64,000 nt of DNA from Tulasnella sp. 424 (lineage: Eukaryota; Basidiomycota; Agaricomycetes; Cantharellales; Tulasnellaceae). Below the pieces are notes generated by a model, which saw only the letters and a list, made by a program, of their open reading frames with translations, did not search any database and was not told the origin of the DNA. The DNA lies in the NCBI GenBank assembly GCA_019633425.1, contig WSUB01000020.1, positions 62,001-126,000 on the forward strand, in the 5' to 3' direction. Numbering within the stretch: the stretch's first letter is position 1; each line of letters begins with the position of its first letter. A program made the position numbers and the translations under genes. Of the stretch, positions 48,108 through 50,394 are shown in pieces.

Positions 48108-50394
48108 TCATCGTGCTACATCATCAATCTCCTGAGTCGCGGCGAATTGAAGATCTTCTTGAAGAAGTCGTAATGCCTCATTCATGGATATCCTCTCTTC
48201 AGGAATAGTAGGCCAGCAAGCTTCAGCAACCGCCCAAACTCTCTCGTAAGACAATCCAGTAGAAGACACGGCAGGGAATTTAGTAGGTCGTCTGCCTTGA
48301 ATCAAAACAGCACGGATGATAGCACCCTCCGTTTGGAGGTCGAGAAAAGGGGCATCGCCAGTAAGAATCTGGTCTCGGAGCGGTGTTGAGATGACACGAC
48401 GACATCCAAGCCAAGCCATAAAGACAGCTCACCTCAGCTATAGTCATGGCGAACGCGTACACATCCGATTTGAAACTCTTGGAGTCGCCATCCCACAGCT
48501 CTGGGCTTTGCCATCGAAGACTACCGACTCCTTTCATCGCGGTTGTAGTGATCAAGTTGGCTGCTTTTGTGAGACCGAAGTCACAAAGCAAGACCTGTCC
48601 CTTGTCGCCGACAAGTAGGTTGTTGGCTTTGATATCGCCGTGCACGATATCCTGGGCGTGTAGATAGCTGACTGCGTCTGCAGCTTCGCACAGCTGTTGA
48701 AAACCGCGTCATCGTAAGCTGGGAACTCCTCAGATCGAATGACAGACATACGAGCTTGATACGGTTTACGATCGGGTCCCGGACGATATACTCGAGCAAG
48801 GTCCCGTTCTCAATGAACGGGCTTACGAAATACAAATGCCCATCTCTCTGAAAACTGCCCAGGTACTCCAGAATATGGGGATGCTGTAGTTTCTCCCACG
48901 TTGCAGCTTCGCGTTTAAATCTCTTCGATGGGAGTAAGTATATCACCAGAAAAGACGTTTATGATAGAGAACACTGCGCGTACTCTAACGAGGTCGTCAT
49001 TGCATACTGTGGGATCGATCCTTGGCCTCTTGAGAGCCACTTTCCCGGCCTTTGAGTGGGTACCAGCGAATAAATCACCGAAGCCACCGCTGATTTTGAC
49101 GGGCGTCGGCGCTATCCAGGTGATCAGGGCGCCAACATCTGCATATGCAAGAGAGCCAGAAGGATGGGTATCCGATGGCGCGCCCTCTGGAATGAACTCG
49201 TTCGGATGTTCGCTGATGTATTTCCTCATCGCACGTTCCAAGTCAGAGTAGTACATTCGTTGGCCGTCAAATGCACTCTGTTCGACAATCGCTTTGGAAC
49301 GCAAGATGAGATTAATTGTTCGACTACCTCCAAATGCAGACGGGCGAAAAGAACTTACATTTGATGGAACTACGCCCACTCCACTCGACGTCCGTCGTGA
49401 CGATAATGTTCGTGCTCGCCGACCCAGCCCACATGATGCAAGTCCGAGTCTTGCACACGAACACGCCTCCACTCGGTACGTCGGGGGTGCTCGTGGTCGT
49501 AACAGTACTAACGTACGAGTCAAAGTCGACGTGGACCGTCTCCTCCTTCAACTCGCAATTGGTCTGCCTAGGACCGACACTCCCGTTCAAGGATTTGATG
49601 TACGACATTGATCGAGCAAGGAGCTGGGAGCCTTCAGACTTCGGGTACCAATCTGATATTTGAAGCGCTGCAACCAATCGTTAGTACTTCGCAGCTAGAG
49701 GCAACAGAACTCAGGACGTACATATTAACTTCTGATCCTTGGCCAAGAAATCCTTCATGAACCCACTCGCGAATATCAAGTTGTAAATTTTTTCCGGTGT
49801 ACCGGGGAAAACTGTTTCCCAAACTTGCTCGGGATAATGAGTCTTGTCCTTCCCGCAGCCGCACTGAGTGGGCTGATATGCCGGGAGCCCGTTTGCGCTG
49901 CTGGAGTTTTGACCTTGATATCCATTCTCTTGTGTTAGGGACTGAACTAGGGACCTGTTTGCACCGTTGACAAGGACGGTGTTCACACCTTCATAGCTCA
50001 TATTGCCTGAGGGTGCGTCCGATGGTGGCGGCTCTTCGACCGCAGGCGACAACACGGCAACGGCAGCGGAGGGAGCTGGAGGGAGGGCTGGAAATCCAGC
50101 ACGTTGAGTCGCATCTTCGTCCCTTCTTTCCCGCATCTGGTACAACATCCGCTCATCCATCGCGTTGGACGATTGCAGAGAATCGTACAGCGGCCAATCG
50201 GAAGTCTCAGCAGCGGCTGAGTCGTCGTGGTCGGCGCGATACTCTATCGGCGATGATATCGCGGCGGGATTCTCGTCGAAAGACGACTTCGTGCGGTACG
50301 GTAAGAGATCCTCATGCGGAGAGCTGTTTTGATTGGGCCCGGCTGGGACTTCCGGGGAGCGAATCTGGTGCAGTTGGCGGAGTAGTGTGTTCAT
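48108..50394 (-). CDS. VASt (sterol-binding) domain fused to a non-RD protein kinase, 660 aa
   Basis: Six exons (50394-49722, 49667-49359, 49291-48984, 48922-48752, 48693-48433, 48368-48108) sum to 661 codons including stop. Residues 1-177: disordered, Ser/Pro-rich. Residues 178-360: VASt domain of Lam/Ysp2-type sterol transporters, with VFPGTPEKIYNLIFASGF, MSYIKSLNGSVGPRQTNCEL, VHVDFDSYVSTVTTTSTPDV, TRTCIMWAGSASTNIIVTT, VEWSGRSSIK and AFDGQRMYYSDLERAMRKYI. Residues 394-655: kinase with GGFG loop (396-399), VALK lysine 415, HGDIKANN (Asp 507, Asn 512), DFG Asp 525 and SLRWQSPELW. Exon 3 holds the VASt end and the kinase start without interruption. The usual GRAM domain and transmembrane segment of Lam proteins are missing. 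All catalytic residues are kept, so an active, lipid-responsive kinase is conceivable but unproven. Confidence 0.85.

What the first reader, a model, noticed from the sequence alone, without database searches (positions are those of the whole stretch)
48108..50394. In-frame fusion of a VASt sterol-binding domain to a complete protein kinase
One exon (49291-48984) contains both the last VASt helix (DGQRMYYSDLERAMRKYI) and the kinase glycine loop and catalytic lysine (GGFG, KVALK), without stop, splice site or frame change between. All six exons total 661 codons in frame. VASt domains normally sit in GRAM-containing Lam/Ysp2 sterol transporters anchored at ER contact sites; here GRAM and membrane anchor are absent and a kinase with Lys, Asp, Asn and DFG intact takes their place. 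I know of no described VASt-kinase. A soluble kinase directly controlled by sterol or phospholipid binding is an appealing inference.
Basis: partly seen in the sequence, partly recalled or inferred. Interest (0 to 1): 0.9.

Follow-up and report, generated by a model that had tools for sequence, protein, structure and literature searches.

The report
Fungal sterol-domain kinase fusion gene
A fungal gene joins a lipid-binding domain, copied from a sterol-transport gene, to a protein kinase; the same pairing seems to have arisen separately in other mushroom relatives, so it may be a lipid-sensing kinase, which has not been tested here.

Summary
Window 50394..48108 (minus) gives six exons, 660 codons plus stop, with a full VASt domain (aa 191-337, E 1.6e-38) and kinase (aa 395-640, E 6e-36); exon 3 holds the junction. 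The genome is probably Tulasnella sp. 424 (contig lengths).

The gene is a three-part chimera. Its N-part resembles a gene on contig C168, its VASt block a GRAM-VASt gene on C74 (both introns kept), and its kinase is a cassette found behind other N-parts elsewhere in the genome. A copy on C68 shares VASt, junction and kinase. The window VASt is under purifying selection (omega 0.19, 0.10-0.37); for C68 the estimate is 1.04.

VASt-kinase proteins are also predicted in Ceratobasidiaceae and Paxillus, with distant kinases and in other VASt clades, which suggests at least three origins. Five literature searches, two with capped listings, showed no description. Wheat WKS1, a non-RD kinase fused to START, is the closest known design.

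Lipid control of the kinase is untested; no transcript was seen.

The parts
49722..50394 (-). exon 1: start codon, N-terminal part (aa 1-121) and start of the VASt block (aa 1-224)
   Evidence: frame open, GT donor at 49721
49359..49667 (-). exon 2: core of the VASt domain (aa 225-327)
   Evidence: intron positions shared with canonical C74 genes
48984..49291 (-). exon 3: last VASt helix, linker and kinase glycine loop with catalytic Lys (aa 328-430); holds the fusion junction
48752..48922 (-). exon 4: kinase N-lobe, helix C Glu (aa 431-487)
48433..48693 (-). exon 5: kinase catalytic loop HGDIKANN and DFG (aa 488-574)
48108..48368 (-). exon 6: kinase C-lobe and stop (aa 575-660)
49263..49824 (-). 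span coding the VASt domain (PF16016, aa 191-337), two introns inside
   Evidence: E 1.6e-38; best solved relative Lam4 6byd E 1.8e-23
48171..49091 (-). span coding the kinase domain (PF07714, aa 395-640)
   Evidence: E 6e-36
50030..50406 (-). N-terminal part homologous to the 5' part of a gene on contig C168 (two aligned blocks, 73% and 80% DNA identity)
49177..50031 (-). VASt block homologous to a canonical GRAM-VASt (Lam) gene, 79-80% DNA identity to two C74 genes, introns kept
48118..49143 (-). kinase cassette; in six other kinase loci of the genome the alignment starts at the same base (49143), 71-75% DNA identity
47871..50028 (-). whole VASt+kinase+3' flank block shared with the second fusion locus on contig C68 (82%)

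Best explanation
This is a real chimeric gene of Tulasnella. It was built at the DNA level from the 5' part of a C168-like gene, the VASt exons of a duplicated Lam/Ysp2-type gene, and a portable non-RD kinase cassette (of TKL type, by my judgement from Pfam and nearest solved relatives). These parts and the junction are shown by sequence; the direction and order of copying are inferred. The most likely way it works is also inferred: the soluble protein uses its VASt domain to bind or sample a membrane lipid, most likely ergosterol, and this binding positions or switches the attached kinase. A lipid-transport module has thus become the sensor of a signalling kinase. My probability is about 0.95 that the fusion gene is real, about 0.6 that its VASt still binds a lipid, and about 0.4 that binding controls kinase activity or location.
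For: Gene model and domains. Junction and introns are conserved in the C68 copy, about 0.3 synonymous substitutions per site away. On the window branch the VASt has omega 0.19 (95% 0.10-0.37); the kinase has pairwise omega 0.27 (0.17-0.42). Of 69 VASt positions at least 95% conserved in 119 canonical rows, the window changes 4. Of 46 kinase positions at least 95% conserved in 40 kinase rows, it changes none. The residues aligned to Lam4 D61 and K89, which line the sterol entrance, are kept as D220 and K249 (alignment; roles from passages of PMC6940019; numbering by my own count; residues checked). VASt-kinase fusions recur with kinases that are 28-32% identical to the window kinase and with VASt domains in three separate clades; in each the kinase follows the VASt. 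Kinase-START fusion has a precedent in WKS1 (passages).
Against: No lipid binding, kinase activity or transcript was shown. The window VASt has 4 changes at conserved positions, where canonical rows have median 0, 90th percentile 2 and maximum 14. The residue aligned to Lam4 Q121, which coordinates the sterol hydroxyl, is Thr, and that aligned to S181, reported as highly conserved in the family, is Tyr; the two canonical Tulasnella genes have the same residues, so yeast rules transfer only in part. The sister copy on C68 keeps the kinase but has lost the conserved Asp-Trp and has a VASt omega near 1, so lipid binding may not be needed in that copy. Ordinary shuffling could explain the join without functional coupling.
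Confidence: 0.45

Rival explanations
1. By-product of kinase-cassette shuffling: in Tulasnella this kinase is joined to many unrelated N-terminal parts, VASt is one of them, and the join has no regulatory meaning; the kinase does the work and the VASt is a passenger or a simple solubility or dimer domain.
For: The same cassette follows a homeobox part (C376; a paralogue on C112 is 83-87% identical and no search reported the cassette there), a PAH-like part below Pfam's cut-off (C139), other kinases (C46, C193, and C84 by likeness to P0121), a long part without Pfam match (C334) and short leaders (C35). Six kinase loci begin to align at the same base of the query. The C68 VASt has omega about 1.
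Against: The window VASt itself is under purifying selection (0.19). VASt-kinase joins in Ceratobasidiaceae and Paxillus use distant kinases, which shuffling of this one cassette does not explain.
Confidence: 0.3
2. Integrated-decoy kinase: the VASt is a copy of a cellular protein that invaders or partners target, and the non-RD kinase reports the interaction, as proposed for plant kinase fusion proteins.
For: Non-RD kinase (HGD); a large duplicating family with swapped N-terminal parts, two of them copies of resident genes; plant kinase fusion proteins, Yr36/WKS1 among them, are disease resistance genes, and integrated decoys have been proposed for them (passages).
Against: No interaction, no infection data and no sign of positive selection on the window copy; the plant likeness is an analogy across kingdoms.
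Confidence: 0.12
3. Gene-model artefact: two separate transcripts, one VASt-like and one kinase, that I have joined.
For: No RNA data; no fetched database protein above 82% identity matches this gene; standalone kinases of the family are annotated (P0167, P0170, P0182).
Against: The junction lies inside one exon with no stop, splice site or frame change and is kept in the C68 copy, annotated as one protein in Tulasnella sp. 425 (P0009). The junction segment has 76% amino-acid identity and omega 0.29, but its interval is wide (0.11-0.76, 42 codons).
Confidence: 0.05
4. The VASt only tethers the kinase to sterol-rich or anionic membranes and does not switch it.
For: From general knowledge VASt domains contact membranes; with the GRAM and the usual tail gone, the VASt is the only recognised lipid-binding part left.
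Against: Not separable from gating by sequence.
Confidence: 0.13

Closest known systems
Lam/Ysp2/GRAMD1 (Aster) sterol transporters
   Same: VASt domain; best solved relatives Lam4 6byd (E 1.8e-23), then Ysp2, Aster-C and GRAMD1A; the VASt block is homologous to two resident members
   Different: no GRAM domain; the tail that carries the membrane anchor in canonical members is replaced by a kinase
Wheat WKS1 (Yr36), kinase-START
   Different: plant protein; START rather than VASt. From recall: the kinase comes first and START last; here VASt comes first. No sequence was compared.
Expanded kinase families of Agaricomycetes (FslK and TKL kinases)
   Same: lineage-specific expansion in Agaricomycetes (passages of PMC3937382); nearest solved relatives of this kinase include Abl, TNNI3K, CTR1 and RAF
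   Different: I did not test which named kinase group this cassette belongs to; the passages I read mention no VASt partner
GRAM-VASt-kinase proteins of Ceratobasidium sp. 423 (P0015) and Rhizoctonia solani (P0152; P0153 looks like a truncated model); VASt x3-kinase of Paxillus involutus (P0001)
   Same: VASt followed by a kinase
   Different: kinases 28-32% identical to this one and VASt domains in other clades; GRAM kept in P0015 and P0152, three VASt in P0001; seen only as database predictions

Membership tests
VASt domain family (PF16016) | full-length match to the VASt profile above cut-off | tested here: met
   132.8 bits against cut-off 27, profile 2-152 of 152
Lam/GRAMD1 sterol transporters | GRAM domain before VASt | tested here: not met
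   no GRAM hit at E up to 1; homology to canonical genes starts after the GRAM
Lam/GRAMD1 sterol transporters | C-terminal ER membrane anchor | tested here: not met
   homology to the canonical genes ends at 49177 and the kinase follows; hydropathy alone inconclusive
Lam/GRAMD1 sterol transporters | sterol binding and transfer | not testable with these tools
   residues aligned to Lam4 D61 and K89 are kept, those aligned to Q121 and S181 differ
Protein kinase (PF07714/PF00069) | glycine loop, VAIK Lys, helix C Glu, catalytic Asp and Asn, DFG | tested here: met
   GGFG 396, K415, E435, D507, N512, D525; 0 of 46 conserved kinase positions changed
RD kinases | Arg before the catalytic Asp (HRD) | tested here: not met
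   HGD at 505-507
Protein kinase | phosphotransfer activity | not testable with these tools
   no assay
WKS1-like kinase-START proteins | homologous START plus wheat-type kinase in one protein | not tested
   no WKS1 sequence was fetched or compared; the resemblance is one of design, from passages

The most novel reading that the evidence does not exclude
Tulasnella has a gene-making habit: a portable kinase cassette is joined, at a nearly fixed 5' boundary, to copies of resident genes (VASt of a sterol transporter, a homeobox gene, and others), giving a fungal counterpart of plant kinase fusion proteins in which the copied domain is the sensor or decoy. The VASt-kinase is its sterol-sensing member, a design that evolution reached at least three times in Agaricomycetes.
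Probability: 0.2. Interest if true: 0.85.

Novelty: new variant of a known kind. Interest (0 to 1): 0.6.

Why it matters
If the VASt part gates or places the kinase, this would be a direct, soluble sterol-to-phosphorylation switch in fungi, where sterol levels are mostly read by membrane proteins (recalled), and it could be tested with two purified domains. Even without gating, what look like at least three independent joins of the same lipid-binding domain to distant kinases suggest that the pairing is useful, and the shared cassette boundary gives a clear case of kinase fusion genes being made with copies of resident genes.

Tried and rejected
Gene-model artefact as the main reading: rejected because the junction lies inside one exon and is kept in the C68 copy. 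Retroposition of the VASt: rejected because both VASt introns are kept at the same positions. P0009 of Tulasnella sp. 425 as an independent confirmation of the window gene: rejected. It equals the C68 paralogue (569 of 585 aligned positions identical; the rest are 15 gap positions and 1 mismatch at annotated introns), so the confirmation is by a paralogue. One common VASt-kinase ancestor for all lineages: rejected by kinase identity (28-32% to the window kinase) and by the VASt tree. Mobile-element ends around the gene: the repeat finder on 46800-52200 showed only short repeats; no other search for transposon ends was made. The bacterial promoter/terminator scan found nothing and does not apply to a fungus.

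Limits: each protein search lists only the best 120 hits (120 of 341; 120 of 495; 120 of 554), and searches scored only the 7993 candidates sharing most words, so further fusions may be hidden. Genome searches score only the best candidates (128 of 878; 135 of 2201, list cut), so absence from them is not proof. Partners were looked at in 13 fetched stretches, 10 of which gave a cassette start, while one search listed 140 exon matches. The models of P0001, P0015, P0152 and P0153 were not checked at the DNA level.

Full report
WHAT IS THERE. On the minus strand at 50394..48108 six exons splice to 1983 nt (660 aa plus stop) with five GT..AG introns of 54-67 nt. Pfam finds VASt at aa 191-337 (E 1.6e-38) and a protein kinase at aa 395-640 (PF07714 E 6e-36, PF00069 E 3e-35), and no GRAM at E up to 1. 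Exon 3 (49291-48984) holds the end of VASt, the linker and the kinase glycine loop and catalytic lysine without a break. K415, E435, D507, N512 and DFG 525 are present; HRD reads HGD, so the kinase is of the non-RD type. The next genes are an LSM-domain gene, with an exon at 46893-47054 (plus strand) beyond the 3' end, and a septin gene, with an exon at 50947-51375 (plus strand) beyond the 5' end.

WHOSE GENOME. Contig C74 (89229 bases) has the length of the contig that carries FRC04_003217 and FRC04_003219 of Tulasnella sp. 424, C46 (416242) that of FRC04_002356, and C35 (463363) that of FRC04_001880 and FRC04_001881. The window is therefore very probably Tulasnella sp. 424, Cantharellales. 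The window gene itself is not among the 221 proteins fetched: the highest identity is 82%, over the VASt block only.

WHERE IT CAME FROM. DNA comparison inside the genome gives three blocks. (a) 50406..50030 matches the 5' part of a gene on C168 (two blocks, 73% and 80%); no Pfam family was found in the 202-residue C168 stretch tested. (b) 50031..49177 matches two canonical GRAM-VASt genes on C74 (79-80%), with both introns at the same places; the 5' breakpoint lies inside an exon of the canonical gene. (c) 49143 onward matches the kinases of C376 (two), C35 (two), C334 and C38 (71-75%); these six all begin to align at the same base of the query. A second locus, C68, matches 50028..47871 as one block (82%), so VASt, junction, kinase and 3' flank were copied together. 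Its N-part is different and carries another kinase, of which an 85% identical DNA copy lies on the other side of the fusion. The order of events I infer is: VASt exons of a duplicated Lam gene joined to a kinase cassette; that unit was copied; each copy sits behind a different 5' part. In all, the VASt family search found four loci in this genome, and two of them are joined to a kinase.

THE KINASE CASSETTE. The stretch that begins DVGxLITWI follows unrelated N-terminal parts in Tulasnella proteins: homeobox (P0132), SH3 type (P0128, P0145), PAH (P0130), TPR (P0133) and other kinases (P0121, P0123). The Pfam numbers are and sequences, except P0133; some Pfam names are recalled. In the own genome the homeobox-kinase lies on C376, and a paralogue of its N-part, 83-87% identical, lies on C112. 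Neither the DNA search nor the kinase protein search reports the cassette on C112, and the C112 kinase matches listed (262735-263568 and 570332-570766) lie before the homeobox at 574536; all three searches score only part of the candidates or list part of the matches. So a resident gene with a kinase-bearing copy is seen at least twice. The C139 locus has a PAH-like part, but below Pfam's cut-off (17.6 against 21.3). The long C334 part has no Pfam match; other matches to it lie on the same contig.

SELECTION. Nei-Gojobori estimates: window against C68, VASt omega 0.40 (95% 0.24-0.64), kinase 0.27 (0.17-0.42), junction (42 codons) 0.29 (0.11-0.76); dS 0.32 and 0.29 for VASt and kinase. Splitting the VASt change between branches with the two C74 genes as reference: window omega 0.19 (0.10-0.37), C68 1.04 (0.44 to unbounded); dN is larger on the C68 branch in 990 of 1000 resamplings. 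Of 69 VASt positions at least 95% conserved in 119 canonical rows (117 proteins), the window changes 4 (P66S, K77N, F141S, I146V in domain numbering), C68 changes 9, among them the conserved Asp-Trp, P0015 changes 2 and the three Paxillus domains 7, 7 and 3 (one of these a gap); canonical rows have median 0, 90th percentile 2, maximum 14. Of 46 kinase positions at least 95% conserved in 40 rows, the window changes none and P0009 one; the 40 rows have median 0, 90th percentile 4, maximum 5. The window copy thus looks like a maintained two-domain protein; the C68 copy looks like a kinase with a relaxed or freely diverging VASt.

OTHER LINEAGES. One search (VASt query, 120 of 341 hits listed) showed three proteins with kinase and VASt: P0001 (Paxillus involutus, three VASt then kinase), P0009 (Tulasnella sp. 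425, the C68 gene) and P0015 (Ceratobasidium sp. 423, GRAM-VASt-kinase). (120 of 554 listed) added P0152 (Rhizoctonia solani, GRAM-VASt-kinase). P0153 (R. solani) is annotated as a kinase only, but its first 60 residues match the end of the P0152 VASt at 72%. Kinases of P0015, P0152 and P0153 are 72-81% identical to each other. The window kinase is 32%, 30%, 28% and 29% identical to those of P0015, P0152, P0153 and P0001, and the P0001 kinase is 31-32% identical to those of P0015 and P0152. In P0015 and P0152 the DFG motif reads DFD (sequences), so activity there is less sure. A FastTree of 181 VASt rows (13 short rows dropped, P0153 among them; midpoint rooting) puts the window and C68 with Tulasnella genes (support 1.0), P0015 and P0152 with Ceratobasidiaceae (0.999) and the Paxillus domains with Boletales (0.934); the grouping of window with C68 itself has 0.739. 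That makes at least three separate joins, if the deposited models are right; I did not check the gene models of P0001, P0015, P0152 or P0153 at the DNA level.

HOW IT MAY WORK. Nearest solved VASt relatives are the Lam4, Ysp2 and Aster domains. In Lam4 the sterol entrance is lined by D61, K89 and S181, and Q121 coordinates the sterol hydroxyl (passages of PMC6940019). By my own count on the alignment the window has D220, K249, Y341 and T281 there; the two canonical C74 proteins have the same four residues. Sterol or related lipid binding is therefore plausible and not shown. With the GRAM and the usual tail gone, the VASt is the only recognised lipid-binding part. The simplest working model is lipid binding by VASt that places or switches the kinase; tethering without switching, an integrated decoy, and a passenger domain are the rivals.

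WHAT IS KNOWN. Khafif et al. 2014 (PMC4082322, passages) list GRAM, C2, Pex24p, FCH and PH as partners of VASt; the one use of 'kinase' found in its main text is ceramide kinase in the background. Gatta et al. 2015 (PMC4463742, passages) has one use of the word kinase, in a reference title. Searches (12 of 12 papers listed; 20 of 305; 20 of 13,999; 2 of 2; 2 of 2) listed no paper whose title or abstract start speaks of a VASt-kinase; I read listings only, except where passages are named, and the library holds open-licence papers only. [quoted passage not shown] Kinase family expansion in Agaricomycetes is known (passages of PMC3937382).

VERDICT. The fusion is real at the gene level, and I found no description of it in the papers searched. 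It is not unique, and it belongs to a wider habit of kinase-domain shuffling. I call it a new variant of a known kind (kinase joined to a StART-superfamily domain). The sterol-controlled kinase remains a good, testable idea.

Noticed in passing
G000 contig C68:294438-296607 (L035 4939-7108): Second VASt-kinase locus, 82% identical in DNA, set between two copies (85% identical in DNA) of another kinase, the upstream one being part of the deposited P0009 model; its VASt lost the conserved Asp-Trp and has omega about 1.
   Followed up: yes
G000 contig C376 (L039 3617 and before) and C112:574536-576381: Homeobox-kinase fusion made from the same kinase cassette; an 83-87% identical paralogue of the homeobox part lies on C112, where no search reported the cassette.
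   Followed up: partly
G000 contig C168 (L051): Likely relative of the window gene's N-terminal 120 residues; no Pfam match in the stretch tested, with an intron-like break that the window gene lacks.
   Followed up: partly
window 52451-54391, minus strand: Long open frame with many TPR repeats after a start that reads like the end of a kinase (my reading), about 2 kb beyond the 5' end of the VASt-kinase.
   Followed up: no
window 47956-47838 and G000 C68:143345-143461: A piece of about 119 bp in the 3' flank has a 79% copy elsewhere on C68, perhaps a small repeat element.
   Followed up: no
P0009 (FRC05_004022, Tulasnella sp. 425): Against the C68 DNA the deposited model lacks 13 residues at the start of VASt and 2 before the kinase helix C, probably wrong introns.
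   Followed up: partly
P0001 (Paxillus involutus): Three VASt domains in a row before a kinase, no GRAM among its listed Pfam domains.
   Followed up: partly
G000 C84 and C46 (L054, L055, L044): Tandem kinases: a divergent kinase-like part followed by the cassette kinase.
   Followed up: no
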